From: Rhizobium oryzihabitans
Lineage (GTDB): Bacteria; Pseudomonadota; Alphaproteobacteria; Rhizobiales; Rhizobiaceae
Length of the DNA: 64,000 nt
Assembly: GCF_010669145.1 (NCBI RefSeq)
Contig: NZ_CP048632.1
Span: forward strand, 1,612,001-1,676,000
Reading direction: 5' to 3'
A program made the translations under genes and the position numbers. Shown piece by piece: positions 2,912-63,403 of the stretch. The number at the start of each line of letters is the position of its first letter. The stretch's first letter is position 1. Below the pieces are notes generated by a model. The model was not told the origin of the DNA. It searched no databases and worked only from the letters and a program-made list of their open reading frames with translations.

Positions 2912-3655
2912 TCAATGGATGTAACCGAGACGGATCGCCTTTGCGATCGCCTGAATGCGGTTGACGGAATCGAGCTTGATCGTCGCCGAACCGAGATAGG
3001 CATTGACGGTATGCACGGAAAGCCCGAGCTTGACCGCGATCTCTTCGCTGATACGGCCATCACCGGCCAGTTGCAGGCAGGCGATTTCCCTCTCGCTCAA
3101 GGCTTCCGAAGGTGCCGCCTTGCGCTCGTCCAGCGCCAGCATGTCGACCATGATCTCGCAGCATTTAATGTGCTGCTCGATGACGACTTCATTGTCGAGA
3201 ACGAGATTGCTGCCGCAGAAAACGATGTAGCCGTTGCCGATGGTTCCGAGCCGCACCGGCAGGGCCAGGCCCGCATAGGGCAATGTGTCATTCTCGATCC
3301 GGCGCAGCAGCGCCGGCACGTCGGGAAGATCGGCAAAGCCGCCGGCGTTCTTGTTGCGCCAGATGACCGGCAGCAATGAGGTCTCGATATGATCGAGAAG
3401 AATGTCACCGACAGCGCGGATGAACTGCGTGCTCTGTTCTGCGGCATTCATGCCCCAATTTTCCAGCTCGCAGGTCATCTTCTTCTTGTTGGGGAAACCG
3501 GAAGCGGCGGCCTTCGTCACCACGAAATTCCGCGCGCCGACCACCTTCTGCATGGCGACGAGTTTCGGAAACAGGTCCGACCGGGTTGTCACGACCGGGC
3601 TGCGGTGAAACATCCCCGTTTGACCAAAGCCCTCATTGTCCTTCGTCTGTACCAT
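2912..3655 (-). CDS. visR: LuxR-family motility regulator VisR
   Basis: About 247 residues. The C-terminal 60 form a LuxR/FixJ helix-turn-helix (LSEREIACLQLAGDG, then SEEIAVKLGLSVHTVNAYL). The N-terminal part resembles an autoinducer-binding-like fold with no clear ligand motif. In Sinorhizobium and Agrobacterium, VisN and VisR form a heterodimer that is the master regulator of flagellar and chemotaxis genes. Position directly after visN and near fliF fits this. A TTG at 3673 would make it overlap visN by eight bases; I prefer the ATG at 3655, ten bases after the visN stop codon. Confidence 0.87.
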   Translation of the reverse strand: MVQTKDNEGFGQTGMFHRSPVVTTRSDLFPKLVAMQKVVGARNFVVTKAAASGFPNKKKMTCELENWGMNAAEQSTQFIRAVGDILLDHIETSLLPVIWRNKNAGGFADLPDVPALLRRIENDTLPYAGLALPVRLGTIGNGYIVFCGSNLVLDNEVVIEQHIKCCEIMVDMLALDERKAAPSEALSEREIACLQLAGDGRISEEIAVKLGLSVHTVNAYLGSATIKLDSVNRIQAIAKAIRLGYIH

Positions 3656-3665
3656 CGTTCGATGC

Positions 3666-4436
3666 CTATACAAGGTTGTTGCGCACGGCGTAGGCGATTG
3701 CCTCCGAGCGGGTTTTCGTCGCTGTTTTACGCATCACGCTTGTAATGTAATTATTGATCGTATTGCGAGAAATGCCAAGGATCATCGCAATTTCGTCACT
3801 GGTCTTGCCTTCGGCGATCCAGAACAGGCACTCAAGCTCACGTTCGGTAAGATCGATATCCCGCACCGCTTTTGCTTCGCTGGCGATGCCGAAACTGACG
3901 CAATACCCTGTCAGCAGGGCGATTTCGCGCAAACGTTCGGGTAACGGTACCGCATTTTCAGGAAACAGCAATAGCAGCGAAAGCCGGATGCGGCCCACGC
4001 AGAAGGACAGGGCCGAATATTGCCGGTCGATGCCGTAGGGAACGGACACATCGTCGGGAAGGAAAAGCAATTTCGGCCGCAGAAGCGAAAGGCATTTTTC
4101 CATTTCGCTTGATCTGTTCTGGCTGTTCGTCAGTTCAACACCGAGCCTACGCACCAGATCGAAGGGCCAGTCGGACGTGACGATAAATTTCAGCCCGGTT
4201 TCTTCGAGAAGATCATCCCGCGCCAGCAGATAATGCGAGGCGCCGGCGTAGGTTACGAGCAGATCCAGCGCGCCTGAAACGTTACCGGCAGCGGCCGTAG
4301 CAGCGACGTTTTTGGCAAGCTGGTCGCGCGGCAAGGGCTTACCCATGCCCTCCATAGGCTTGGCAGACAGCCTGCGGATATCAACATCGACTTTCAATCG
4401 CCTACGCCCTCTTGCTCCCAGCGGGAGATTATACAT
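3666..4436 (-). CDS. visN: LuxR-family motility regulator VisN
   Basis: 256 residues from the ATG at 4436; internal ATGs at 4355 and 4346 are alternative starts because no strong ribosome site precedes any of them. The C-terminus is a LuxR-type helix-turn-helix (LTERELECLFWIAEGKTSDE, then ISRNTINNYITSVMRKT). The N-terminal two thirds lack recognisable catalytic motifs, as expected for the regulatory half. It is the first gene of the visNR pair, and the roughly 300 bases upstream, beyond the fliF terminator, should hold its promoter. By homology it acts with VisR at the top of the flagellar hierarchy. Confidence 0.86.
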   Translation of the reverse strand: MYNLPLGARGRRRLKVDVDIRRLSAKPMEGMGKPLPRDQLAKNVAATAAAGNVSGALDLLVTYAGASHYLLARDDLLEETGLKFIVTSDWPFDLVRRLGVELTNSQNRSSEMEKCLSLLRPKLLFLPDDVSVPYGIDRQYSALSFCVGRIRLSLLLLFPENAVPLPERLREIALLTGYCVSFGIASEAKAVRDIDLTERELECLFWIAEGKTSDEIAMILGISRNTINNYITSVMRKTATKTRSEAIAYAVRNNLV

Positions 4437-4735
4437 CGGGATGGAATCATTCCATTCGAGAAGCTTACCAAAACGGGATGGCGCACCCCCGGAGACCGAA
4501 TCACTTCATTTTATGGAACCGACCGGAATTTGCCATTACCTGACAACAGCCTTTCCACGTATTTCCCTGCTCGTCTATTGCTAAAAAAACATACTGAAAA
4601 GCTGGCCAATCCATAAACGGCATTCTCAACCTATTCCCAGCAAACTGTATCGTTGCTGAATTTTTTGTAAACAGTGTCCTGAAACGAGAATGCAATCGCG
4701 CGCCTGCCAGCATATCAAAAAGCCCCTAAATGCGC

Positions 4736-4762
4736 AAAAGGCCGGGTAAACCCGGCCTTTTT
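4736..4762 (-). terminator. Rho-independent terminator after fliF
   Basis: Perfect stem AAGGCCGGG/CCCGGCCTT with a four-base loop, followed on the minus strand by a T-rich tail. It lies just after the fliF stop codon and separates fliF from visN. The remaining sequence to 4436 (about 300 bases) has no gene and presumably carries the visN promoter; I do not see a clear -35/-10 pair. Confidence 0.8.
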
Positions 4763-4767
4763 CAATA

Positions 4768-6450
4768 TCACGCGGCTTTTTCCACCGCCCATTTGCGAAG
4801 AATCTTGGCTGCTCTTTCCTCGCTGATTTCCACCATGCGGGAGAGCCTGCGCTCGGGTCCTTCGCGAACGCGGCGGTTGAAGGTGCCTTCGCTGTCGCCG
4901 CCAGCCAGAAGGTCGTCGGTGCTGTCGAAGCCGAAATCCGCCCCGAAACCTTCCATGAGACCACCTGCGCCGGCATCCATGCCCGGGGAGAAATCAGGCA
5001 GTTCGAGACCTGCGGCCTCCTGGCTGAGCTGGGCTGCCGCTGCACCGTTGCCGGCAACCGAGCGGACCAGGGGACGTACACCGAGCCAGATGACGAGGAA
5101 GGCGACGGCGACGAAGGCGAGCGAGTTGATGATGCCTGCCGAATTGCGGCTCAGCACTTCCATGATGCCCGGTCCGCTTGCGGCTTCATCGAGCAGCTGC
5201 GTTTCGAGGAAGTCCATGGCCGTCAGCGTGACCATATCGCCGCGATCGGAAGAAATGCCCGCAGCCGAGGTTACGATCTTCTGCATTTCCGCAAGATAGG
5301 CATCGATCTTGGCCTGATCGGCGGGTTCACCGACCATCTTGGCAATGCGACCCTTGTTGACGACCACGGCGACCGAAAGCTTCTCGACGGTATAACCGTT
5401 CTTAACGGTGGCGACCGTCTTGGAATTGATCTCGTAGTTGGTCTGTTCTTCTTTCTTCGCGGACTGGTCGGAAGACTGTGGACCACCGGCACCGCCCTGC
5501 GGCGCTGCCTGCGGCACGTTCTGCTCCACGGTCGCTGCCGTGTCGGGCTGCGTTTCCTGGGACTTCTGGTCTTCCTTCACCGTGCGGACGGAGCGCTCGA
5601 CGCGCGATTCCGGATCGTAGACGGTTTCCTGAATCTGGCGGCTGTCGGTATTGAGCTGCGCAGTCACGCTCGAGCGGAAATTGTCCATGCCGAGGAAAGG
5701 CGCCAGCGCCTTGTCGATATTGGTTGTGATTTCCTGCTGGACGTTCTGCGCCAGCGTCAGCGAGCGGTTCATGGCGGCATTGGTGACATCGTCGCCGGAA
5801 GCCAGAAGCTGGCCGGTCGAATCGAGCAGCGTCACGTCATCGACTTCAAGACCTGGAACGGCCGAGGCGACGAGGTGACGGATGGAGGCAGACGCCTTGC
5901 GCCCGGCGGTGGCACTGGCGCGGATCATGACCGATGCGGTGGGCTTCTGTTCGCCACGGCGGAAATTGCCGACATCCGGCATGACGATATGGACGCGTGC
6001 GGCCGCAATCCCGTCAATCTGCTGGATGGAGCGGCTGATCTCGCCTTCGAGGGCGCGAACCCGCGTCACTTCCTGCATGAAGGAGGTCAGGCCGAGAGAA
6101 CCGACATTGTCGAAAAGCTCATAACCGGCATTGGCGCTGTCGGGCAGGCCACGCTCAGCCAGCAGCAGACGTGCCTTGCTGGTAAGCCCGACGGGAACCT
6201 GAAGGCTCGAACCATCGGTTCCGACCTGAAAGTCCAGCCCCGATTCAGCAAGCGCAATGCTGATCTTGTTGAGGTCGCTCTTTTCAAGTCCCACATAGAG
6301 AGTCTCGTAGGTGGGACGGTTCACATAGAGTGCCGCTGCAAGGATAACGGCCATGGACAGAACGCCCACGCCGCCCAGCATCAGAAGCCGTGTCTGACCG
6401 AGAGCCGCGACATTCTTCAAGACCTGAGGGATTTGATTTAACAGATTCAT
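4768..6450 (-). CDS. fliF: Flagellar MS-ring protein FliF
   Basis: About 560 residues, the normal size for rhizobial FliF. Membrane helix near residues 23-43, then the YscJ/FliF ring-building domains (LYVGLEKSDLNKI and SIRHLVASAVPGLEVDDVTLLD are typical), a proline/glutamine-rich linker, a second membrane helix near residue 440 (SLAFVAVAFLVIWLGVRPLV), and a C-terminal acidic-to-basic tail ending ISEERAAKILRKWA, the FliG-binding segment. It forms the inner-membrane base of the flagellum. The ATG at 6450 has CGGAAC eight bases upstream; the ATG at 6468 has none, so the shorter start is chosen. A strong terminator follows. It lies 129 bases downstream of cheT. Confidence 0.95.
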   Translation of the reverse strand: MNLLNQIPQVLKNVAALGQTRLLMLGGVGVLSMAVILAAALYVNRPTYETLYVGLEKSDLNKISIALAESGLDFQVGTDGSSLQVPVGLTSKARLLLAERGLPDSANAGYELFDNVGSLGLTSFMQEVTRVRALEGEISRSIQQIDGIAAARVHIVMPDVGNFRRGEQKPTASVMIRASATAGRKASASIRHLVASAVPGLEVDDVTLLDSTGQLLASGDDVTNAAMNRSLTLAQNVQQEITTNIDKALAPFLGMDNFRSSVTAQLNTDSRQIQETVYDPESRVERSVRTVKEDQKSQETQPDTAATVEQNVPQAAPQGGAGGPQSSDQSAKKEEQTNYEINSKTVATVKNGYTVEKLSVAVVVNKGRIAKMVGEPADQAKIDAYLAEMQKIVTSAAGISSDRGDMVTLTAMDFLETQLLDEAASGPGIMEVLSRNSAGIINSLAFVAVAFLVIWLGVRPLVRSVAGNGAAAAQLSQEAAGLELPDFSPGMDAGAGGLMEGFGADFGFDSTDDLLAGGDSEGTFNRRVREGPERRLSRMVEISEERAAKILRKWAVEKAA

Positions 6451-6579
6451 TCTGTTCCGCACCGTCATTCATAGAGTCCGAGACCTTTTGGCCCCGTGGT
6501 GACAATAGGGTGCGAAGCTTGCGCGAGCGTTGCCTTTCTCCGTTATCCGCGAAGGAGGGATGAATGGCTGCTGTAGCGT

Positions 6580-6963
6580 CTAGAACAGATCGAAGTCGCC
6601 GGAGGCCTTGTCGAGCGGCTGGGAATGGCCGTGGCGGAAGGCCGCGCCCAGCGCCTTCTGCATCTCAGCAAGCTTGACGAGGCTGAGTGCGGTCGAGACG
6701 TCCACGATCCACTCACCGGGGATAGAGCCCGTGATGGTATCGATGAACTCGGCAAGGCCGCGGGTCTTTTGAACGGCAAGGTCGATGCCCTGCAGCAGTT
6801 TGACGCCGTCACCGGACAACTGGCCGCTGGTCGCTTCCAGCAATTGCGGCTCGATGCGTTCGATGAGATAGGCGACGTCGTGCAGCTCCGATACCACGCG
6901 CATGAGAACATCCGGCAGGGCTTCTTCGAACGGAGTGGTGCCGGTGTGGTCTGCAATCTGCAT
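6580..6963 (-). CDS. cheT: Chemotaxis protein CheT (last gene of the che operon)
   Basis: 127 residues, largely helical. Position immediately after cheD matches the small gene at the end of the che operon of Sinorhizobium meliloti, where it is called cheT. Residues 61-65 read DLAVQ, a D-x-x-x-Q motif like the catalytic motif of CheZ and related CheY phosphatases, in a predicted helix. The expected role is in signal termination and adaptation. The gene starts 14 bases after the cheD stop. The motif is seen in the sequence; phosphatase activity is inference from the family. Confidence 0.78.
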   Translation of the reverse strand: MQIADHTGTTPFEEALPDVLMRVVSELHDVAYLIERIEPQLLEATSGQLSGDGVKLLQGIDLAVQKTRGLAEFIDTITGSIPGEWIVDVSTALSLVKLAEMQKALGAAFRHGHSQPLDKASGDFDLF

Positions 6964-6977
6964 TGGAAACTCCGTGA

Positions 6978-7523
6978 CTAGAAAAATTCGATGTCGTTGG
7001 CGACGGGTTTGGGCGCCGGCACCGGACGCGTTTCCATCGCAACCGTCTTCTGGGTTTCCGCGCCGCTCAGCGGATGCTGTCGCGCACGACCGGAGACCGG
7101 CCAGAACTCGATCTTGCGGCCATGTTCCCCGCCCGTGGAGGAGCTTATGACCGGAATACCTTCATCCTTCAGAAACTGCATGGCGAAGATGGCATTCTGC
7201 TCGCCGACATTGGAGAAGCTGGCGATCGTCTTTGCGCCACCGAAAACCTTCGCCTCCAGCCGGTCGCGGCGGGCGCCCTTCTTCAGAAGGCCGTTGATCA
7301 GCAATTCCATGAGATGCACGCCATAACGCGTCGCATCTCCACCGGTCACATTGCCGGTTCCCGGCAGCAGGAAGTGGTTCATGCCTCCGAGGCCGGCAAC
7401 GGGGTCTCTCAGACAGGCGGCCACGCACGAACCGAGTATCGTCGTCAGAACCACGTCGGGATCGCTGACAACCTTATACTCGCCCTGAATGATATGTACG
7501 CGCTTGGCCGCAGTTTCAATCAT
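6978..7523 (-). CDS. cheD: Chemoreceptor glutamine deamidase CheD
   Basis: 181 residues. Catalytic Cys33 in [10 protein letters not shown] and His50 in GGMNHFLLP are present, with the later FGGAKTI and NVGEQNA motifs of the CheD fold. It deamidates glutamines on receptors to glutamates, making methylation sites. The ATG overlaps the cheY2 stop codon by four bases (ATGA), showing translational coupling. The C-terminal 30 residues are a proline-rich tail ending NDIEFF. The acidic-aromatic end also occurs in CheT (GDFDLF), which I note without assigning a function. Confidence 0.95.
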
Positions 7524-7909
7524 TTCAGCGATCCGAAAACCGCCTCGATGGCTGCACGCATCTTGTCGATGGTGAAGGGCTTGGCGAGCACGTTGTTGGC
7601 GCCGAGCTGGGCTGCCTTCTGCACCAGCGCGCGGTCACCCTGCGCGGTGAGGATGATGAAGGCGGCCTTCTTGGTGGTCGGGTTGGCCCGCACGGCGTGC
7701 AGGAAACCAAGACCGTCCATCTTCGGCATGTTGAAGTCGGAGATGACGAGATGATGGGGCTGCTGCTCCATGATCTTTAATCCCTGCTCGCCATCGCCAG
7801 CGGCAGTGATCTGCTTGAAGCCAAGCTGTGTCAGCGCATCGCTGAGGAGCAGCCGGCTGGTCACCTGATCGTCAACGATCAGAACTTTGATCTTTTCTGC
7901 GAGAGACAT
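7520..7909 (-). CDS. cheY2: Chemotaxis response regulator CheY2
   Basis: 129 residues, a stand-alone receiver domain. Asp13/Asp14, phosphoacceptor Asp58 in [12 protein letters not shown], Thr88 and Lys110 in LAKPFT are all present. In the rhizobial two-CheY system, CheY2 is the main output that slows flagellar rotation when phosphorylated, while CheY1 acts as a phosphate sink. It overlaps cheB by one base and cheD by four bases. Confidence 0.93.
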
Positions 7910-8964
7910 TAGTCAGCACCTTCTTTACGGGCAGTGGTTAGTTTCAGGATTTCTTCGCCGATGGAGGCCAACGGCAATTGCTGTTCCACGGCGCCAAGCT
8001 CATAGGCCACACGCGGCATGCCGTAAACGACACATGTTTTTTCGTTCTGACCGACCGTGCGTGCGCCGGCATGGCGCATTTTCAGCAGCCCGGCCGCACC
8101 ATCGCGGCCCATGCCGGTGAGAATGACGCCGACGGCGTTGCGGCCGGCAAGCTCGGCCACCGAATCGAACAGCACATCGACGGAGGGGCGATGGCCATTG
8201 ACCGGATCGCGCTCGACCAGGCGGCAGCAGGGTGCTGCACGATTGGCGATCTGCAGATGACGTTCGCCGCCCGGCGCAAGGTAGATCTTGCCAGTCTGGA
8301 GGCGTGCGCCGTCCGTCGCCTCTTCCACGACAGGTGCGCAGATGCGGTTCAGCCTTTCCGCGAAACTCTTGGTAAAGGTCGGCGGCATGTGCTGGGTGAT
8401 GACGGTCGGCGGGCAATTGGCCGGAAACTTCTGGAGCACGGCGATCAACGCCTCGACACCACCCGTGGAGGAGCCGATGGCCACGACCTTGCGGCCGGCG
8501 CGGTAATCGCTGACCGGGGTCGGCTGCGGGGCGGCAACGGTTTCGGGGCGCGCCGCGCGATAGGCCGCGTGCTGCGAGCGGGCAGCCGCCTTTACCTTGT
8601 CGGCGAGATCCCCGAAGGGGCGGGCATCGCCCGGCGCCGGCTTGCCGACGCAGTCAAAGGCGCCGATTTCAAGGGCTGCGAGCGAGGCATCCGCGCCGCG
8701 ATGCGTCAAGGACGAGACCATGATGACCGGCATTGGCCGCAGTCGCATGATCTTTTCGAGAAACTCGAGACCGTTCATCTCCGGCATCTCGATATCGAGC
8801 GTCACGACATCGGGATTGAGCTGCTTGATGGCGGCGCGCGCTTCCATGGCGTTGCCGGCCTGGCCCACCACCTCGACCTCCGGATCAGCCTTGAGGACGG
8901 CCGAAATCAGGCCGCGCATGGTTGGGGAATCATCGACGACGAGTACCCGTGCGAGTGCGCTCAT
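7909..8964 (-). CDS. cheB: Chemotaxis-specific methylesterase CheB
   Basis: 351 residues. N-terminal receiver with Asp57 in [14 protein letters not shown], a linker, then the methylesterase domain with the catalytic triad Ser166 (IGSSTGG), His192 (TQHMP) and Asp288 (GMGRDGA). It removes methyl groups from receptors, and phosphorylation by CheA activates it, giving adaptation. Start ATG overlaps the cheR stop (ATGA). Normal family length. Confidence 0.96.
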
Positions 8965-9869
8965 GCCTTCCTCCCGGATGCGTGACCAATGAAGCGGTAA
9001 GTGGTGATGCCCGTATTATCGAACAGGTTCTTTGCATCACCGGACACGCGTTCGGAATGCCCGATATAAAGATGACCGCCTTCCGGCAGCAGCCCGGCGA
9101 AGCGTGACCAGATTCGCATCTGGGTCGGCTCGTCGAAATAGATGACGACGTTGCGGCAGAAGATAACGTCGAAATTGCCCTTGAAGGGCCATTGCGTCAT
9201 CAGGTTCAGTTCGTTGAACGTGATGAGGCGCTTGACCTTGTCGTCGATGCGGAACTTGCGGCGACCGCCGGCATCGACTTCCGTGAACCATTGCTTGCGC
9301 ATGGCTGGGGAGACGGTTTCCAGCGCATTGTCGTCGTAAATGCCGGCACGGGCCTGCGCCAGTATCTTCGGATCGATATCCGTCGCCAGTATCTTGAAAT
9401 CGTAATCGGCCGCATTCGGAAACATGGCGAGCACGGTAAGCGCGATCGAATAGGGCTCCTGCCCGTCGGAACAGGCCGCAGACCAGATGCGGACACGCCC
9501 GCCGGATTTCGCCCGCGCGATGAGGCCCGGCAGGACCTCGTCCCGCAGATGTTCAAAATGATGGTTCTCGCGGAAGAAGCGGGTGAAATTCGTCGTCAGA
9601 TGCGACAGCATTTCGCGCCGCGCCTGCGCGCCCTCGGGCGAGGACACCAATGCGCAATATTCGCGGAAGCCCGACAGGCCGAGATTGCGGATGTGCTTGG
9701 ACAGGCGGGAATAGACCAGCGACGCCTTGGTGTCGTTGAGATAGATGCCCGCATCCGCGTAGATCATCGCAGCGATCTCCGACAGATCGCGCCTCGACAG
9801 CGGATATTCGCCGCTGGCAAGGACGTCGTCGGGAGACTGGCGCTGGTCGCTGAGATTAAGTGCTGCCAT
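8961..9869 (-). CDS. cheR: Chemoreceptor methyltransferase CheR
   Basis: About 302 residues from the ATG at 9869. An upstream TTG at 9899 lies inside cheA; the ATG has AGCGGAAC before it and lies 14 bases after the cheA stop. N-terminal helical domain (residues about 25-90), then the SAM-binding fold: [28 protein letters not shown], and CRNVVIYFD. It methylates glutamates on receptors using S-adenosylmethionine and pairs with CheB for adaptation. Confidence 0.95.
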
Positions 9870-55224: not shown

Positions 55225-58200
55225 ATGACTTCGATCATTTCTTCCCTGAATGTCAATCAGATCAAATATCTTTCGACAGCAGCAGTTGCAGCCTGGACAA
55301 CCGATGAGGTGGCGACGCTTTCCACGGCTCAGATTAAAGCGCTTTCTTCCGATCAAGTCGCGGCACTGGATGCAGAGGATGTCAAAGTCCTCAACTCCCG
55401 ACAGTTAAGCGCCATCTCACAGGGCGCCATCATCGGTTTGACGTTGGATCAGCTGAACATCCTCGATCAATACGCCATCAAGAGCCTGAGTGCGGGTCAG
55501 ATTTCTGCGCTCACCACCACGCAGATCGATGCGCTGACGGTCGATCAAGCGGAGGCGTTGACCGCGCCCCAGGTGAGCGCCCTCAAAGCAACGCAACTTG
55601 CGGCCTTCAGCGCGGAGGAATTAGCGACCTTCTCGACCGCCGATATTGCGGCGATAGCCGCGAGAGCCATGCCCGGCTTGAGCACGGAGGCGATCGCAGC
55701 GCTTACCCCAGATCAGATCGCGGCTCTGAACATAAGCGCCATTGCGAGCCTGACGACCGATCAGATCGCGGTTTTGAGTCCAGGTCAGATCGAAGCCCTG
55801 TCGCCCGCACAGATCAGGATGCTGAATTCGGCGCAACTCGCGGCCTTCAGCGTGGAGGATATAGCAACCTTCTCGACCGCCGATATTGCGGCGATCAACG
55901 CCAAGGCCCTGCCGGGCATGACCACGGATAGTGTCGCCGCCCTGTCCCTCGATCAGATCGCCGCATTGACGGCAGCTCAGGTTGCCGCACTCAAAACGAC
56001 ACAGGTCGCGGCCTTCAGCGTCGGCCAGATCGAAGCCCTGTCGCCGGCGCAGGTGATGGCGCTGAGTTCGGCGCAACTCGCGGTGCTCAGCACGGATGCC
56101 ATAGCGGCCTTCTCCCTCGCCGACCTCGCGGCGGTGACGGCCAGAGCCGTGCCGGGCCTGAGCACGCAGGCGCTATCAGGCTTTACCCCCGATCAGACCG
56201 CTGCCCTCAGCACGGGCGTAATTGCAAGCCTGACGACCGATCAGATCGAAGTCTTGAGTACCGATCAGATCGCAGCCTTGACGACGGCTCAGATTGCCGC
56301 ACTCGGGACGAAACAGATTTCGGCTTTCAGCACGAGCCAGATCGAGGCCCTGTCACCGGCGCAGGTGAAGGCGTTGAGTGCGGCGCAACTCACCGCCCTC
56401 GGCGCCGAGGATATAGCAACCTTCTCCACCGCTGATATCGCGGCGATCAACAGCAAAGCAATCTTCCGCCTGGGTACGGAGGCGATCGCTTCGCTTAGCG
56501 ATGATCAGATCGCAGCCTTGACGACAGCCCAGCTCAACGCCCTCAGCGCAGCGCAGTTTCAAGTCCTGAACGCCACTCAGATCGAACTCCTGTCGACCGC
56601 CCAGATTGCCGCCCTGAACGCCGGCGTGATCGCAAGCCTGACAGCAGATCAGATCGACATCTTGAGCACCAGTCAGGTCGAGGCCCTGTCCTCCGCGCAG
56701 GTGAGGTCGCTGAGTTCGACGCAACTCGCGGCCCTGCGTCTGGAGCAGCTGATGACATTCTCGACCGCTGATGTCGCGGCAATCACGAACAAGGCCCTGC
56801 CGGGCCTGAGCGTGGATGCTATCGCCGCGCTGACCAGAGATCAGATCGCTGCTCTAAGCGCCAGCGCAGTCACGGGCCTGACCACCGATCAGGTCGAAGC
56901 CCTCAGTCGCGATCAGGTCGGCCTTCTCTCCGCCGCGCAGCTTAAAGCGTTGAGTTCGGCGCAGGTCGCTGCCCTTGGCAGCGATGTGACGGTCCTCTCC
57001 ACCAGCCAAACCGCAATGTTGGGTGCAGCGGGTGTCAGGGGCCTGAGCGCCGATCAGATTGCCGCCATGAGCGTCGGTCAGTTTTCGGCCTTGACCGCAG
57101 TCCAGATCAGCGCGCTCAGCGCGGCGCAGATCGCGGCCGTGAGCGAGGACACCATAAAATCACTTTCGCCGGTCCAGATCGCGGCCATAAGCGCCGCAGG
57201 CATCGCGGGACTTTCAACCAGTCAGATCACCGCTTTGAGCACCGATCAGATTTCACGTCTGACCACCCGGCAGATGGCAAGCTTAAGCTCGGCGCAAATT
57301 GCCGGTCTGGGCACAGACGACATAGCTGCTCTTTCAAAAAACCAGATCGCTTCCATAAGTGCCGCAGGCATTATGGGACTGAGCGCCGAGCAGCTGGCGA
57401 CCTTCAGCACCGGTCAGGCCAGCGCCCTGACGGGCGCGCAGATTGTCAATCTCGATTCCACGCAGATTTCGGCACTGGGCACGGATGATCTCGCGACATT
57501 CACACCCAGGGAGATTGCCGCCATCGGTTCGACGGCGATCCCGGGCTTGTCGACCGAAACGATGGTGTCCCTGACGACGGCGCAGATCGCCGCCCTGAAT
57601 ACGCAAAGCATCAGTGCACTGAGCACGGCGCAGATCGCCGCCCTGACCACCGCTCAGGTGGCTGCCCTGACCCCTGCACAGGTCAGCGCGCTCTCCTTGA
57701 AGCAGATCGCCGTCTTGAGCACGGATGACATTGCAACATTCTCGACCAAGGATATTGCCGCGATCAGCTTAAACGCGATCCAAGGTCTGTCGACCGAGAC
57801 CCTAGCCTCCATGACAACGGGTCAGATTTCGGCTCTCAACGCACAAAGCATCGGCGCGCTGACCACCGCGCAGATTGCCGCCTTGACGACGGCACAGGTG
57901 GAGGCTTTGACCACCGCACAGGTCGGCGCTCTCACCTCGAAACAGATCGCCGTCTTGAGCACGGAGGACATTGCAACATTCTCCGCCAGGGATATTGCCG
58001 CGATCAGCGCCAGCGCCATCCCCGGCCTGTCAACGGAGACCATAGCCTCCTTGACGACGATGCAGATTGCCGCCCTGAGTTCCGCTGGCATTGGTGGACT
58101 GAGCACCGGGCAGGTGGCCGCCTTGACCAGCGGTCAGGTGAACGCGCTGACCAATGCCCAAATCCGTGCCCTCGCCTCCAGACAGATTGCGGCGTTGCGC

Positions 58201-60369
58201 CCGGACGATATCGTCTCGCTTTCAGCAAGCCAGATAGCCGCTCTCAGCGCTGCGGGGATTATGGGCCTCACCCCTGATCAGATTGACGCCCTCACCACCG
58301 ATCAGGTCGCGGCTCTGAACAGCGCTCAGATCGGCGCGCTTAACTCGAAACAGATTGCCGCCCTCAGTCCTGATGATCTCAACACCTTCACCGCCGCCGA
58401 GCTGGCTGCAATCAGCTCCACAGCGATCCGGGGTCTGTCGACAGCAACGGTCGCTTTGCTGACGACGGCTCAGATCGCAGCGCTGGGCACGGCAATATCG
58501 GGCATGACCACCGACCAGGTTGCAGCCCTCGGGACCAATCAGGTGGGCGCCCTGACCAGCGCCCAGGTCAGCGCCCTCACCTCCAGACAGATTGCAGCGC
58601 TGGGTACAGACGACATCGCCTCGCTTTCGGCAAACCAGATCGCCGCTCTCGGCACAGCGGGTGTGACTGGCCTGACCACCGATCAGGTCGCGGCGCTCAG
58701 CGCCGATCAGGTCGAGGCCCTGACCAGTGCCCAGATCGGCGCTCTCAGCTCCAAACAGCTTGCCGCCCTCGGTGCTGATGACCTCAGCACTTTCACGACC
58801 GCGGAGCTGGCCGCAATCAGCCTGAATGCGATCCCCGGCTTGTCGACGACCACGATCGCTTCGTTGACGACCGCACAGATCGCCGCCTTCGGCACGGCGG
58901 CGATAGCCAGCCTGACCATCGACCAAATTGGCGCGCTCGGCACCAGCCAGGTAGAGGCCATGAGCAACGCCCAAATCGGCGCCTTCACCTCCAAACAGAT
59001 TGCAGCGCTAGGCACGAATGACATCGCCTCGCTTTCAACAGCCCAGATCGCCGCTCTCAGCACGGCGGGCATAACAGGCCTGACCAGCGATCAGATTGTG
59101 GCGTTGAGCAACGATCAGGTCGAGGCTCTGACCGGCGCTCAGATCGGCGCGCTCGACTCGAAACAGATCGTGGCCCTCAGCGCCGATGATCTGGTCACAT
59201 TTACCAATTCCGAGCTGGCTGCAATCGGCATGAATGCGATCGCGGGTCTTTCAACGGAGACCATAGCGTCGCTGACGGCAGCGCAGATCGCAGCATTGAG
59301 CCCGGATGCCATCAGTGGGCTGAGCACCGGGCAGGTGGCCGTCTTGACCAGTAGCCAGTTGAACACCCTGAGCAATGCCCAGGTTAGTGCCCTCACCTCC
59401 AGACAGATTGCCGTCCTCAGCCCCGCCCACATCGCCTCATTCTCGGCAACCCAGATAGCGGCTCTCGATGCTCTGGCTGCATCCGGCTTCAGCGGCGCAC
59501 AGATCGGCGCCCTGAGTGGTGGGCAGATCGAAGCGCTCTCCACCCGCCACATCGCATCGTTGAGTTCGGAGGCGCTCACGGGCCTGTCTCCGGCCATGCT
59601 GAAAACCTTCTCGCCGGCGGAACTCGCTGCGATTGGCTCGAACGCGATAAGGGGATTGTCTACCGACTTCATCGCCACATTGTCTTCCACTGACGTTGCG
59701 GCCTTGAGTACAGCCGGCGTCGCCGGATTGACCAGCGACCAGATCGGCGCTTTCGGCAAGGAGCAGATCCGGGCACTCACCACCGGCCAGATCGCCGCGT
59801 TGAGTTCAGCCGCACTAGCAGGGTTGACGGCGGAAGGTCTGGCAACCTTTACCACCGAGGAACTCGCCGCGATCAACTCGTCGGCGATCAGGGGGCTTTC
59901 CACCGGCGTCATAGCGTCCCTTTCCTCTCAGGGTGTAGGCGCACTGACGACAAGCCAGGTGGCTTCGCTGAGCTACGGCCAGGTGGCGGCAATGGGTTCC
60001 GCGCAAATCGGAGCCCTGACATTGACGCAGGTCGGCGCCCTTAAATCGCTGCAGACAGCCGCATTTGGCGGAGACGATCTCGCCGCATTGTCCACCGAGC
60101 AAATCATCAGCTTGAGTTCAAACGCGATCTCGGGATTGAGCACCAGCGCGCTCGCCGCATTGACGGCCTCGCAGGCGGCGGCCTTCACACCGGGTCAGAT
60201 CGCCGCCATGAGTTCAGCGCAGGTCGTGGCTTTGAACAGCGACGATCCAGTCAGCAGCTCCGCCCAAACCATCGCCTCATCCACCGTAGCCGACACGTCG
60301 ACGACGCAGGCGACGTCTCAACAGTCGCCAGACGTCGCTGCTGCGATTTTGTCCTACCTGAACGCATGA
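55225..60369 (+). CDS. Giant octapeptide-repeat protein of unknown function
   Basis: 1714 residues. After seven N-terminal residues, the chain parses without gaps into eight-residue units of the form L-[ST]-x-x-Q-[IV]-x-A up to residue 1669; then a 45-residue Ser/Thr/Ala-rich tail ending DVAAAILSYLNA. By length arithmetic there are 208 units; two are seven residues long (near 56974 and 58483). Ser/Thr followed three residues later by Gln fits a helix-capping box, so a compact helical solenoid is plausible. I see no Cys, one Trp, few Lys/Arg, no signal peptide and no membrane segment. The tail could be a type I secretion signal, but no transporter lies near. The 24-base units differ at DNA level, which argues for an old, maintained array. 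Lies beside a prophage attachment site. I do not recognise the family. Confidence 0.9.
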   Translation: MTSIISSLNVNQIKYLSTAAVAAWTTDEVATLSTAQIKALSSDQVAALDAEDVKVLNSRQLSAISQGAIIGLTLDQLNILDQYAIKSLSAGQISALTTTQIDALTVDQAEALTAPQVSALKATQLAAFSAEELATFSTADIAAIAARAMPGLSTEAIAALTPDQIAALNISAIASLTTDQIAVLSPGQIEALSPAQIRMLNSAQLAAFSVEDIATFSTADIAAINAKALPGMTTDSVAALSLDQIAALTAAQVAALKTTQVAAFSVGQIEALSPAQVMALSSAQLAVLSTDAIAAFSLADLAAVTARAVPGLSTQALSGFTPDQTAALSTGVIASLTTDQIEVLSTDQIAALTTAQIAALGTKQISAFSTSQIEALSPAQVKALSAAQLTALGAEDIATFSTADIAAINSKAIFRLGTEAIASLSDDQIAALTTAQLNALSAAQFQVLNATQIELLSTAQIAALNAGVIASLTADQIDILSTSQVEALSSAQVRSLSSTQLAALRLEQLMTFSTADVAAITNKALPGLSVDAIAALTRDQIAALSASAVTGLTTDQVEALSRDQVGLLSAAQLKALSSAQVAALGSDVTVLSTSQTAMLGAAGVRGLSADQIAAMSVGQFSALTAVQISALSAAQIAAVSEDTIKSLSPVQIAAISAAGIAGLSTSQITALSTDQISRLTTRQMASLSSAQIAGLGTDDIAALSKNQIASISAAGIMGLSAEQLATFSTGQASALTGAQIVNLDSTQISALGTDDLATFTPREIAAIGSTAIPGLSTETMVSLTTAQIAALNTQSISALSTAQIAALTTAQVAALTPAQVSALSLKQIAVLSTDDIATFSTKDIAAISLNAIQGLSTETLASMTTGQISALNAQSIGALTTAQIAALTTAQVEALTTAQVGALTSKQIAVLSTEDIATFSARDIAAISASAIPGLSTETIASLTTMQIAALSSAGIGGLSTGQVAALTSGQVNALTNAQIRALASRQIAALRPDDIVSLSASQIAALSAAGIMGLTPDQIDALTTDQVAALNSAQIGALNSKQIAALSPDDLNTFTAAELAAISSTAIRGLSTATVALLTTAQIAALGTAISGMTTDQVAALGTNQVGALTSAQVSALTSRQIAALGTDDIASLSANQIAALGTAGVTGLTTDQVAALSADQVEALTSAQIGALSSKQLAALGADDLSTFTTAELAAISLNAIPGLSTTTIASLTTAQIAAFGTAAIASLTIDQIGALGTSQVEAMSNAQIGAFTSKQIAALGTNDIASLSTAQIAALSTAGITGLTSDQIVALSNDQVEALTGAQIGALDSKQIVALSADDLVTFTNSELAAIGMNAIAGLSTETIASLTAAQIAALSPDAISGLSTGQVAVLTSSQLNTLSNAQVSALTSRQIAVLSPAHIASFSATQIAALDALAASGFSGAQIGALSGGQIEALSTRHIASLSSEALTGLSPAMLKTFSPAELAAIGSNAIRGLSTDFIATLSSTDVAALSTAGVAGLTSDQIGAFGKEQIRALTTGQIAALSSAALAGLTAEGLATFTTEELAAINSSAIRGLSTGVIASLSSQGVGALTTSQVASLSYGQVAAMGSAQIGALTLTQVGALKSLQTAAFGGDDLAALSTEQIISLSSNAISGLSTSALAALTASQAAAFTPGQIAAMSSAQVVALNSDDPVSSSAQTIASSTVADTSTTQATSQQSPDVAAAILSYLNA
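55246..60231 (+). repeat. Tandem 24-base coding repeats (208 units)
   Basis: The units are in frame throughout the giant gene. A three-unit landmark recurs thirteen times: a unit ending [DE][DE][IL]AT or similar, then F[ST]xx[DE][IL]AA, then a unit ending AxPG, AIRG or AIxG. In the first 300 residues the landmarks begin exactly ten units apart (residues 64, 144, 224 and 304; 80 residues or 240 bases); later spacing widens to 13-14 units. Growth by duplication of multi-unit blocks is implied. Confidence 0.88.
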
Positions 60370-61785: not shown

Positions 61786-62109
61786 TCAACCGGCCATGCG
61801 CCTGTCAAACCACTTATGGAACAGCGCTTCGACACCGCGCGGCCCGAGATAGGCCAGAAGCGCAATCAACCCGGTTGATGCAGGCTGACCAAGATCGGCG
61901 TAGGCGGCTGCACTTTCTCCGATGACTGCCATGCCGAGCGCGACCGGCAGTTCCCAAAACAGTTCGATGCCGAAGAACTTGCGGCGACCCTTCCGGGCCT
62001 CGTTGCCGTGCCACATGAACCGCCCAAGCAAGGCGGCGATAATGGTGGTGAAGGCACCGCCAACCCAAGCATTCATCAGTTCGATGAAAGAAGTGTACTT
62101 TTCCGGCAT
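61786..62109 (-). CDS. Phage holin, LydA-like
   Basis: 107 residues from the ATG at 62109, with AAAGGGCG upstream. Two to three membrane segments (WVGGAFTTIIAALLGRFMWH, FWELPVALGMAVIGESAAAY, STGLIALLAYLGPRGVEALF) fit the LydA/holin superfamily III. It would form membrane lesions that let the lysozyme reach the wall. The start follows the stop of the lipoprotein gene by one base (TGATATG), giving coupling. A longer frame to 62304 is the shadow of that upstream gene. Confidence 0.78.
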   Translation of the reverse strand: MPEKYTSFIELMNAWVGGAFTTIIAALLGRFMWHGNEARKGRRKFFGIELFWELPVALGMAVIGESAAAYADLGQPASTGLIALLAYLGPRGVEALFHKWFDRRMAG

Positions 62110-62110
62110 A

Positions 62111-62350
62111 TCAGCGCCCTTTGCCATGCCGGGCGCATTCGTCCCGGTTCCAGACGTCGCCGCCGCAAAGGCCCACAACAGTCCTGTCGATTTTTCTTTG
62201 ATCTTCCGGCGTTGCACCACGCGCGCCGATGAGGTCAGTCCCGACCACCCGGCGCAGGCCGGATACATCGCCCGGCCCCGAAATCCCACACCCCGCCAGC
62301 GCAATCGTCAAAACGCCCACGAGCACCATCCGCCCGATCCCCAGCCGCAT
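62111..62350 (-). CDS. Prophage lipoprotein, candidate Rz1-type spanin
   Basis: 79 residues. Signal peptide with lipobox: GRMVLVGVLTIALAGC, Cys at residue 21, so a lipid-anchored envelope protein. Two later cysteines (LCGGD, DECARH). ATG at 62350 has AAAGGCAG upstream. It overlaps the next upstream gene in a different frame, the arrangement seen in Rz/Rz1 spanin pairs that fuse the membranes at lysis. Proline content is low for a classical Rz1. Confidence 0.65.
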   Translation of the reverse strand: MRLGIGRMVLVGVLTIALAGCGISGPGDVSGLRRVVGTDLIGARGATPEDQRKIDRTVVGLCGGDVWNRDECARHGKGR

Positions 62351-62474
62351 TATTCTGCCTTTCAGTTTTGGTGACCGCGCGGTACGTCGCGTTGCGGTCG
62401 ATGTAGAGGATGCCGGTGGCGATGAGAGACACCGCCGCCAGCCCGAGCAAAAGATAAAATCCGGTTTTCGCCAT
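62235..62474 (-). CDS. Small prophage membrane protein, candidate Rz-type spanin partner
   Basis: 79 residues from the ATG at 62474, which overlaps the lysozyme stop (ATGA). N-terminal membrane helix (KTGFYLLLGLAAVSLIATGI) followed by a charged soluble part. The last 116 bases overlap the lipoprotein gene in another frame. It is shorter than classical Rz and has no long coiled coil, so spanin function is a hypothesis. Confidence 0.55.
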   Translation of the reverse strand: MAKTGFYLLLGLAAVSLIATGILYIDRNATYRAVTKTERQNNAAGDRADGARGRFDDCAGGVWDFGAGRCIRPAPGGRD

Positions 62475-63403
62475 CACACCGCGACCTCGCGACCGAACAA
62501 ACTGTTGATCCGCCGGGAAAGGACATCGCGTTTGCGGTAGGCGATGACGCCGAGCACCACCGCCGCCGTAAGCAGCGCGATCCACCCCCAGGGCAAACCG
62601 AGCGACCATGCAGCAAAGCCGGAACCGAAGAGCGAGCCTGCACCGCCCTGCACCGCCTCTTTCGTGGCGGCAGCGTCACGACGCAACTGCGACAAGGTGG
62701 CGGGACCAATGATGCCATCGGCAACAAGGTGCGGGTGCGCAGACTGATATGCCTTGACTGCGGCGGCAGTCTTTTCGCCCATCCACCCATCAATTGCGCC
62801 GGGATTGAAGCCCTTCGCAGAAAGGATAGCCTGCGCTTCCTTCACCACCGGATCGGGCTGCGTCGGCGCATTCTCTTGGGCGGAGCGCGGTACGCCTTCA
62901 CCGACGCCCGTATAGATACCCTTTTCGAACAAAAGGGCCTCTTCCTTGCGCCTGCGAACGAGACCGGGCAGCTTCTTGCCACCAGCAGTATTATGATGAC
63001 TGCCGAGGTAATCCGCAGCCTGCTTGGGTTTTCCTGCGCGCCACAGCTTCGCCCACTGCCAATCCATAGCGCCAGTGCCGAGATTGAATATCGCCGACAC
63101 TGCCGCATCCATTTCATGCTGTTTGCGCGCATCCGGCGACTTGGCGACCACGGCAGGCTCGAATTCATCGCGAAGCACCGCCGCGAAAATGGAGTCCGAT
63201 TGTGCTGACGTGAGTTTCGTTTTGCCCGGCACCAGCTTTGTAATACCGATCTTTTCCAGTTCGCGGCGAACAGCCCGGCTTCGCATCGTGAAGCCGCGCC
63301 CGATGGTCGGAATGCGGACAGGGTCAAGATAACAGGTAAGGGGGTTGCCTTCATGAGCGTCCATAAAGGTACGCCCACGCGGTGACGTGGTCACAACGGA
63401 CAT
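62474..63403 (-). CDS. Phage endolysin: GH24 lysozyme with peptidoglycan-binding domain and C-terminal anchor
   Basis: 309 residues. T4-type catalytic triad spacing is intact: Glu18, Asp27 and Thr33 (HEGNPLTCYLDPVRIPTIGR). Then the lysozyme core (AVSAIFNLGTGAMDWQWAKL), a peptidoglycan-binding domain near residues 190-245 (AQAILSAKGFNPGAIDGWMG), and a C-terminal membrane helix (WGWIALLTAAVVLGVIAYRK). It cleaves the glycan strands of the wall. The C-terminal anchor is unusual compared with soluble T4 lysozyme. Confidence 0.88.
   Translation of the reverse strand: MSVVTTSPRGRTFMDAHEGNPLTCYLDPVRIPTIGRGFTMRSRAVRRELEKIGITKLVPGKTKLTSAQSDSIFAAVLRDEFEPAVVAKSPDARKQHEMDAAVSAIFNLGTGAMDWQWAKLWRAGKPKQAADYLGSHHNTAGGKKLPGLVRRRKEEALLFEKGIYTGVGEGVPRSAQENAPTQPDPVVKEAQAILSAKGFNPGAIDGWMGEKTAAAVKAYQSAHPHLVADGIIGPATLSQLRRDAAATKEAVQGGAGSLFGSGFAAWSLGLPWGWIALLTAAVVLGVIAYRKRDVLSRRINSLFGREVAV

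What the first reader, a model, noticed from the sequence alone, without database searches (positions are those of the whole stretch)
55225..60369. Giant protein made almost wholly of a strict eight-residue repeat
By direct parsing the chain is a gap-free series of units L-[ST]-x-x-Q-[IV]-x-A from residue 8 to 1669. The pattern of Ser/Thr then Gln three residues later, with hydrophobic residues at positions 1 and 6, suggests repeated capped helical turns in a solenoid. I cannot place it in a named repeat family. Its size, lack of Cys and low charge suggest a structural, surface or binding role.
Basis: partly seen in the sequence, partly recalled or inferred. Interest (0 to 1): 0.85.

Follow-up and report, generated by a model that had tools for sequence, protein, structure and literature searches.

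The report
Giant octapeptide-repeat protein with glycosyltransferase partner
This giant bacterial protein is a long helical spring of eight-residue repeats from a named but little-studied repeat family; in relatives its gene often stands beside a sugar-attaching enzyme, and sometimes near a protein-export system, which suggests a sugar-coated protein sent out of the cell.

Summary
The ORF is real (55225-60369 +, 1714 aa): 206 octads plus two heptads, so not quite gap-free; 58 of 206 octads fit the strict motif. It belongs to a named family, Pfam PF20080 ALTTAQ repeat (947.6 bits, cut-off 26.4). A solved octad protein, 9zem 'HeliScrew4', matches at 1.8e-17. AlphaFold2 gives a regular solenoid of short helices (mean pLDDT 83.5 and 77.6).

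New here is the gene's company. A TPR-GT41 (OGT/SPINDLY-like) glycosyltransferase gene has ALTTAQ within 10 kb in 75 of 80 loci, mostly Rhizobiaceae, and also in Cereibacter, Niveispirillum, Rhodovastum and Pseudomonas. In this genome it lies beside a second ALTTAQ gene on another contig, not in the window. Export genes can be close: flagellar (17 of 80 loci, four sites; Rhodovastum), type I (Cereibacter, Niveispirillum, Pseudomonas) or injectisome (one genome). Most likely it is a cytosolically O-glycosylated, non-Sec-exported fibre protein; for this copy the route is undecided, the flagellar exporter favoured weakly. Glycosylation and export are inferred, not shown. 8 of 23 ALTTAQ genomes in a family sample lack GT41.

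The parts
55225..60369 (+). ALTTAQ-repeat giant protein, 1714 aa
55225..55245 (+). N-terminal cap MTSIISS, recurrent in relatives (N-terminal motif in 72 of 98 frames of the 80 loci with a stop upstream) and resembling rhizobial flagellin N-termini
   Evidence: predicted as part of the first helical turn
55246..60231 (+). Repeat array: 206 octads and 2 heptads (residues 8-1669)
   Evidence: helical solenoid in AlphaFold2 models of residues 1-420 and 1349-1714
56974..56994 (+). Heptad unit LGSDVTV (register shift, residues 584-590)
58483..58503 (+). Heptad unit LGTAISG (register shift, residues 1087-1093)
60232..60366 (+). Ser/Thr/Gln-rich tail (residues 1670-1714) ending in the recurrent C-terminal peptide DVAAAILSYLNA
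   Evidence: block-mean pLDDT under 55; C-terminal motif in 72 of 92 frames of the 80 loci with a stop downstream
6469..6980 (.). Interval between the FliF (4771-6468) and CheD (6981-7523) matches: the site where sister species carry GT41, UDP-galactopyranose mutase and ALTTAQ; the cassette is absent here

Best explanation
The gene encodes a very long alpha-solenoid in which each eight-residue ALTTAQ unit is one helical turn: residues 1 and 6 pack inside, residue 2 (Ser/Thr/Gly/Asn) caps the helix, residues 3-7 form the helix (predicted). In the cytosol a TPR-GT41 O-glycosyltransferase adds sugars to Ser/Thr of the repeats, most likely at position 3; in this genome the only GT41 gene found is beside the short paralogue on contig C4. 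The protein shows no Sec signal to the eye (no predictor run) and leaves the cell in one step, through whichever machine the lineage has paired with it: type I secretion in Cereibacter, Niveispirillum and Pseudomonas; in Rhizobiaceae more likely the flagellar type III exporter. Outside it forms an extended, sugar-coated fibre for adhesion or surface coating. Shown: repeat, family membership, gene linkage in relatives. Predicted: fold. Inferred: glycosylation, export, route, function.
For: Family: PF20080 947.6 bits. Fold; 9zem at 1.8e-17.

GT41 linkage: ALTTAQ within 10 kb of 75 of 80 GT41 loci, mostly Rhizobiaceae by record title, UDP-galactopyranose mutase near 59 of 80. Of 37 genus genomes 26 have both families, 10 neither, 1 ALTTAQ only, 0 GT41 only. 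ALTTAQ and GT41 are direct neighbours in G046 and G263, Cereibacter, Pseudomonas and Rhodovastum. 26 of 57 ALTTAQ plasmid records have GT41 within 10 kb, compared by hand (a lower bound, as 60 of 100 GT41 records were listed; 11 of the 26 are Cereibacter). Of 14 named control genomes Caulobacter vibrioides has both families, Synechococcus GT41 only.

Acceptor site: in-register Ser+Thr at octad position 3 is 0.80 in 102 proteins of GT41-linked loci (15144 units), 0.48 in 4 proteins from GT41-less genomes and 0.28 in 3 proteins without GT41 within 10 kb, while cap position 2 stays at 0.62-0.84.

Export: at least two distinct flagellar/chemotaxis genes in 17 of 80 loci at four different sites, also near ALTTAQ in G263 and Rhodovastum; T1SS beside it in Cereibacter, Pseudomonas and Niveispirillum-type genomes; an injectisome in G382. 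FliP-family gate in 23 of 23 ALTTAQ genomes of the family sample against 101 of 128 others (p 0.007), and 6 of 6 against 171 of 283 in the class sample (p 0.05). A profile of 56 ALTTAQ N-termini puts 34 flagellins at median rank 39.5 of 3144 other frames.
Against: The window copy itself has neither GT41 nor T1SS nor flagellar genes next to it; its flagellar cluster is 45 kb away. In the family sample 8 of 23 ALTTAQ genomes have no GT41, and 23 genomes have GT41 without ALTTAQ, so neither gene needs the other. 63 of 80 loci have fewer than two flagellar genes within 10 kb. For G382 and G433 the FliP matches score only like the weaker second copies of other genomes, probably injectisome gates, which leaves 21 of 23 with a clear flagellar one.

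The flagellin-like N-terminus may simply be the solenoid cap: the model puts residues 4-7 in the first helix, and a Pseudomonas protein with a T1SS beside it starts similarly. In the same ranking exported FlgE (658.5, n=2) and FlgF (679.5, n=6) stand no better than non-exported FliF (320.5, n=6) and FliP (460, n=6), and about half of the top 45 frames are not flagellins.

Position 3 is Ser/Thr in only 0.55 of window units and 0.58 in GT41-linked G046, close to the 0.48 of GT41-less genomes; two of the three proteins behind the value 0.28 come from genomes that do hold GT41 elsewhere. Genome counts are not corrected for relatedness. The seeds of the 80-locus scan were partly chosen for lying beside ALTTAQ. 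No mass data, no secretion data.
Confidence: 0.55

Rival explanations
1. Same glycoprotein, but exported in this genus by a type I secretion system encoded elsewhere; the flagellar neighbourhood is only a favoured insertion site.
For: T1SS genes flank ALTTAQ and GT41 in Cereibacter and Pseudomonas and lie near them in two Niveispirillum-type genomes; 2 of 80 loci, L150 and L164, have T1SS genes. The C-terminal peptide recurs even behind a Ser/Thr/Gln-rich linker, as a C-terminal signal would.
Against: T1SS hits lie in only 5 of 128 loci, one of them partial. The window protein has no RTX match and the window no hit to five T1SS queries. Flagellar neighbours recur at four sites.
Confidence: 0.25
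2. An intracellular scaffold: the solenoid stays in the cytosol, organises a large assembly such as a polar chemotaxis or flagellar site, and GT41 modifies it as regulation.
For: No signal peptide is visible by eye; GT41 enzymes of this kind work in the cytosol (recalled; FlmG, PMC7591256, is cytosolic); flagellar and chemotaxis neighbours occur.
Against: Of 90 relatives found, 9 carry RTX PF00353, 15 two-partner PF05860, 7 Ig-like PF13205 and 2 DUF4347 PF14252, domains of secreted proteins. T1SS neighbours occur.
Confidence: 0.15
3. ALTTAQ protein is not the substrate but a binding partner of GT41, whose real target is another protein such as flagellin.
For: GT41 genes lie within about 1 kb of FliP in seven genomes of the family sample without ALTTAQ (G376, G394, G401, G418, G439, G474, G486), and FlmG, a TPR protein with a GT-B domain, modifies flagellins in Caulobacter (PMC7591256; abstract, one section and passages).
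Against: The FliP-linked enzyme of L201 scores 576 bits to the local GT41 profile against 1015 and 1144 for two ALTTAQ-linked ones, so it may be another subgroup (no tree made). In Cereibacter and Pseudomonas the pair lies with T1SS, not flagellar genes. Position-3 Ser/Thr is highest in GT41-linked proteins.
Confidence: 0.12
4. A fast-evolving selfish or near-neutral repeat gene without a firm role.
For: Length varies from 254 to 2631 aa among relatives with the shared N-terminus; the C4 paralogue holds 4.5 copies of a 399-bp unit at 98% match; 10 of 37 genus genomes lack the family; some relatives are split over frames, such as L055 and L117, L118.
Against: Long frames stay open over kilobases in most copies seen, both ends recur, and the partner enzyme is kept alongside.
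Confidence: 0.05

Closest known systems
Pfam PF20080 ALTTAQ repeat
   Same: The window protein is a member: 64 stretches, 947.6 bits against a cut-off of 26.4.
   Different: No paper in the held library contains the words ALTTAQ or PF20080. The GT41 and export linkage is added here.
PDB 9zem 'HeliScrew4'
   Same: 120 aa of ALTTAQ-like octads, E 1.8e-17 to the window protein, 3.2e-14 to a 120-aa window segment.
   Different: Short; the name suggests a designed protein (inferred). No paper with the word HeliScrew found; not among the Foldseek rows shown.
FlmG and flagellins of Caulobacter (PMC7591256)
   Same: A soluble enzyme with an N-terminal TPR domain and a GT-B domain O-glycosylates a protein in the cytosol before export.
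   Different: The acceptor is flagellin and the sugar pseudaminic acid (abstract, section 10 and passages seen); whether FlmG is GT41 was not tested.
HMW1A/HMW1C adhesin system
   Same: Giant secreted protein glycosylated by a GT41-type enzyme, known here from the search listing only (PMC3983070, PMC3012730).
   Different: There N-glycosylation and two-partner secretion; the window protein has no PF05860 match.
Mesothelin/stereocilin superhelix
   Same: Best natural Foldseek hits of both models (E 3.3e-4 and 1.2e-4).

Membership tests
PF20080 ALTTAQ repeat | Model score over the curated cut-off | tested here: met
   947.6 bits against 26.4
PF20080 ALTTAQ repeat | Tandem array of octads | tested here: met
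   206 octads and 2 heptads
HMW-type two-partner secretion substrate | N-terminal haemagglutination-activity (TPS) domain | tested here: not met
   no PF05860 match in the window protein at E up to 10, within HMMER's filters
RTX / type I secretion substrate | RTX calcium-binding repeats | tested here: not met
   no PF00353 match
RTX / type I secretion substrate | T1SS genes near the gene | tested here: not met
   no tblastn hit at 1e-10 in the window with two ABC, two HlyD and one TolC query; met for relatives in Cereibacter, Pseudomonas and Niveispirillum
Flagellar type III export substrate | N-terminal export signal | tested here: inconclusive
   N-terminal profile ranks flagellins high but FlgE and FlgF not; the stretch may be a structural cap
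Flagellar type III export substrate | Export depends on the flagellar gate | not testable with these tools
   needs FliP/FlhA deletion and secretome
Cytosolically O-glycosylated repeat protein | Dedicated glycosyltransferase encoded with it | tested here: inconclusive
   yes for 75 of 80 enzyme loci and the C4 paralogue; not beside the window copy
Cytosolically O-glycosylated repeat protein | Sugar on the protein | not testable with these tools
   needs mass spectrometry
Armadillo/mesothelin-type superhelix | Same fold and kinship | tested here: inconclusive
   weak hits only

The most novel reading that the evidence does not exclude
ALTTAQ proteins and TPR-GT41 enzymes form a modular system spread over several lineages of Pseudomonadota: one rigid helical turn per octad with about one sugar at position 3, giving a ruler-like glycan array of tens to hundreds of evenly spaced sugars, exported by exchangeable one-step machines (T1SS, flagellar or injectisome T3SS). 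In Rhizobiaceae the flagellar exporter would send out a giant non-flagellar glycoprotein.
Probability: 0.3. Interest if true: 0.82.

Novelty: new variant of a known kind. Interest (0 to 1): 0.62.

Why it matters
The repeat family is named, but no paper in the held library contains its name or accession, and public records call members 'hypothetical protein', 'ICE nucleation protein' or 'heme utilization protein'. The linkage gives a testable function to a family of giant proteins, a candidate natural substrate for bacterial OGT-like enzymes whose targets are mostly unknown (recalled), and possibly a non-flagellar cargo of the flagellar exporter. A regular array with a candidate sugar site in about half or more of the octads would also be a clean model of how TPR-OGT enzymes read repeated acceptors.

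Tried and rejected
First guess, T1SS: the conserved ~685-aa and ~385-aa neighbours looked by size like an ABC transporter and HlyD; NCBIfam and Pfam showed TPR-GT41 and UDP-galactopyranose mutase instead.

Pfam hits above cut-off to CAAP1, LRR_EndoS and Sigma70_r4_2 on the window protein were taken as repeat-driven false positives. Leucine-rich-repeat PDB hits likewise; with a 120-aa query only 9zem remained at E up to 0.01.

Segment alignment A1 misaligned the repeats and was not used for folding; both models are single-sequence. Foldseek and VIA matches show only generic superhelices; 9zem was not in the rows shown. A sloppy unit parser (first part) mixed registers; the in-register count replaces it.

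One search counted 18 of 80 flagellar loci; in L156 two flagellin queries hit one gene, so the recount gives 17. An earlier count said 18 of 80, 9 of the top 11 and 26 of the top 45; the calls bear out 17 of 80, 10 of 11 and 23 of 45. An earlier count said 14 of 21 loci; the profile search gives 16 of 21.

P0075, an ORF joining ALTTAQ and GT41, has a middle that does not look in frame, so it is taken as neighbouring genes, not as a proven fusion. A tRNA remnant read by eye at about 60412 was not confirmed.

Paper searches for HeliScrew, ALTTAQ, octapeptide repeat + solenoid, octad repeats and PF20080 gave nothing relevant. The mesothelin paper PMC2628672 was seen in a listing and searched for five words, without a hit.

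Full report
OBSERVATION. The ORF at 55225-60369 (+) encodes 1714 aa without Cys. Its repeat is beyond chance: among lags 1-59 identity is 0.29-0.35 at multiples of 8 and 0.04-0.12 elsewhere, and 58 strict motifs stand against a maximum of 1 in 200 shuffles. In register: position 1 Leu 75%, position 2 Ser/Thr 79%, position 3 Ser/Thr 54%, position 5 Gln 58%, position 6 Ile/Val/Leu 94%, positions 7 and 8 Ala in 51% and 57%. A coarser period of 80 residues and one of 136 are also present, as if blocks of 10 and 17 units had been duplicated.

FAMILY AND FOLD. Pfam names the repeat: PF20080 ALTTAQ_rpt, 947.6 bits, 64 stretches. NCBIfam has no match over its cut-off. A solved protein, 9zem HeliScrew4, consists of such octads over most of its 120 residues. 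AlphaFold2 on single sequences gives mean pLDDT 83.5 for residues 1-420 and 77.6 for 1349-1714; most units are a three-residue turn plus a five-residue helix at positions 3-7, with position 2 before the helix start. Foldseek and VIA find only generic superhelices, mesothelin and armadillo proteins, at low TM-score.

GENOME AND RELATIVES. The window lies in contig C1 of a 5.86-Mb genome; a second ALTTAQ gene lies on C4, 840 aa from the first start codon, 803 aa from the MTSI start. Of 90 database relatives found with residues 1400-1714, 15 carry the two-partner domain PF05860, 9 RTX PF00353, 8 the peptidase PF00648, 7 Ig-like PF13205 and 2 DUF4347 PF14252, most of them marks of secreted proteins.

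THE PARTNER. In 16 of 21 first loci (window plus L038-L057) a TPR-GT41 gene lies near an ALTTAQ gene, in 15 of these 16 with UDP-galactopyranose mutase (families); the window, L044, L048, L052 and L057 lack it. In this genome the only GT41 gene found is beside the C4 paralogue, in the order ALTTAQ, GT2 glycosyltransferase, GT41, mutase (L038). Presence tracks presence: of 61 relatives 27 have both families, 1 ALTTAQ only (a 254-aa remnant), 3 GT41 only, 30 neither. In a family sample of 151 the figures are 15, 8, 23, 105 (p 1e-5); in the class sample GT41 is in 5 of 6 ALTTAQ genomes and 101 of 283 others (p 0.03). These tests ignore relatedness. The five without ALTTAQ are L115, L119, L121, L133 and L167; L115 and L133 lie near contig ends. 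Beyond these, ALTTAQ and GT41 are neighbours in G046 and G263, Cereibacter sphaeroides 2.4.1, a Pseudomonas plasmid and Rhodovastum, and lie some 4-6 kb apart in Niveispirillum. Comparing places by hand, 26 of 57 ALTTAQ plasmid records have a GT41 place within 10 kb (11 of them Cereibacter), with only 60 of 100 GT41 records listed; a Thioclava record shows none annotated within 10 kb. The ten GT41 proteins aligned share invariant SSDxxxH, K445 and DTxPYxA; matching these to OGT catalytic residues is recalled, not tested.

A CANDIDATE ACCEPTOR SITE. Counting in register, Ser+Thr at position 3 is 0.80 in 102 proteins of the GT41-linked loci, 0.95 in two Niveispirillum-type proteins (G235, G331), 0.70 and 0.66 in the linked and unlinked copies of G263, 0.67 in the own genus, 0.58 in G046, 0.55 in the window, 0.48 in four proteins from GT41-less genomes and 0.28 in three proteins with no GT41 within 10 kb (of whose genomes G100 and G235 do hold GT41 elsewhere). 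The capping position 2 hardly changes, 0.62 to 0.84. This fits, and does not prove, sugar at position 3. In G046, G263, G235 and G331 position 4 is also 0.66-0.88 Ser/Thr.

EXPORT. At least two distinct flagellar or chemotaxis genes lie in 17 of 80 loci, at four places of the flagellar cluster: between FliN/FliG and FlhB (L123, L128, L130), among flagellin, Mot and FliL-FliP genes (L113, L140, L154, L163, L168, L171, L181, L184), beside FliQ-FlgD (L173, L179, L180, L182, L183) and between CheD and FliF (L186); L156 has one flagellin gene. If a flagellar cluster takes about 60 kb of 5 Mb (an assumption), about 1.3 of 80 are expected (p 2e-14), ignoring relatedness. In seven own-genus loci ALTTAQ sits directly before FliF (L039, L040, L042, L043, L046, L047, L050). 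The window holds the same CheR-CheB-CheD-FliF-VisN-VisR cluster at 2915-9869 without the cassette. Flagellar genes also lie near ALTTAQ in G263 and Rhodovastum. In Cereibacter, Pseudomonas and Niveispirillum-type genomes the neighbours are instead T1SS genes, and in G382 an injectisome. A FliP-family gate is present in 23 of 23 ALTTAQ genomes of the family sample against 101 of 128 others, and in 6 of 6 of the class sample against 171 of 283; for G382 and G433 the FliP matches score only like probable injectisome gates.

TERMINI. Copies from 254 to 2631 aa share an N-terminus like MTSI[IV]x[SN]L[ST]xxQI and a C-terminus like QVAAVIxAYxA, also where a Ser/Thr/Gln-rich linker separates it from the repeats, as here. 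In the 80 loci the N-terminal motif is found in 72 of 98 frames with a stop upstream and the C-terminal one in 72 of 92 with a stop downstream; the rest include split and differing copies. A profile of the first residues of 56 such N-termini ranked 3144 other open frames of the same loci, real genes and chance frames alike: 34 flagellins had median rank 39.5, FlgD 124.5 (n=6), FlgL 98 (n=1), FlgK 79 and 1152, against 1088.5 for MotB (n=8), 2283 for FliL (n=7) and 2605 for FliN (n=5). Against the idea, exported FlgE (658.5, n=2) and FlgF (679.5, n=6) rank behind non-exported FliF (320.5, n=6) and FliP (460, n=6). The model places residues 4-7 in the first helix and the T1SS-linked Pseudomonas protein starts MSSFISSL, so a structural cap is an equal reading of the N-terminus.

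JUDGEMENT. I file the protein as a member of PF20080 and propose, at 0.55, a cytosolically O-glycosylated, non-Sec-exported fibre protein; the flagellar route for this copy would be lower, about 0.35. The corrections made on checking (17 instead of 18 loci, fuller contrary ranks) do not move these odds. It works like FlmG-flagellin (PMC7591256; abstract, section 10 and passages seen) or HMW1C-HMW1A (search listing only), without being a member of either. Not in print as far as the held library shows, by searches for HeliScrew, ALTTAQ, octad repeats and PF20080.

Noticed in passing
G376, G394, G401, G418, G439, G474, G486, G491 (coordinates); L201: A GT41 gene lies within about 1 kb of FliP; all of these but G491 had no ALTTAQ match. 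In L201 (G491) it stands between flagellins and FliP. It looks like a flagellin O-glycosyltransferase distinct from the ALTTAQ-linked enzyme (inferred).
   Followed up: partly
L197 6896-13789 (G382) and L203: A 2297-aa protein with ALTTAQ, DUF4781 and SH3 matches lies in an injectisome-type T3SS locus (T3SS ATPase, YscJ/FliF, YscK, FliP and export-protein family 1 matches).
   Followed up: partly
L212 5734-9186: A Spiroplasma plasmid encodes an ALTTAQ-like octad protein with a hydrophobic stretch near its C-terminus, far from Pseudomonadota.
   Followed up: no
L038 8459-10265: The C4 paralogue contains 4.5 copies of a 399-bp unit at 98% match, a recent expansion.
   Followed up: no
window 61786-63403: Holin and phage lysozyme genes, so a prophage-like region begins shortly downstream of the repeat gene.
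   Followed up: no
window 55225-60369: Pfam models CAAP1, LRR_EndoS and Sigma70_r4_2 score above their cut-offs on the repeats, a source of misannotation.
   Followed up: no
L207 11980-16665: The Cereibacter sphaeroides 2.4.1 member is annotated 'ICE nucleation protein'; other records say 'heme utilization protein'.
   Followed up: no
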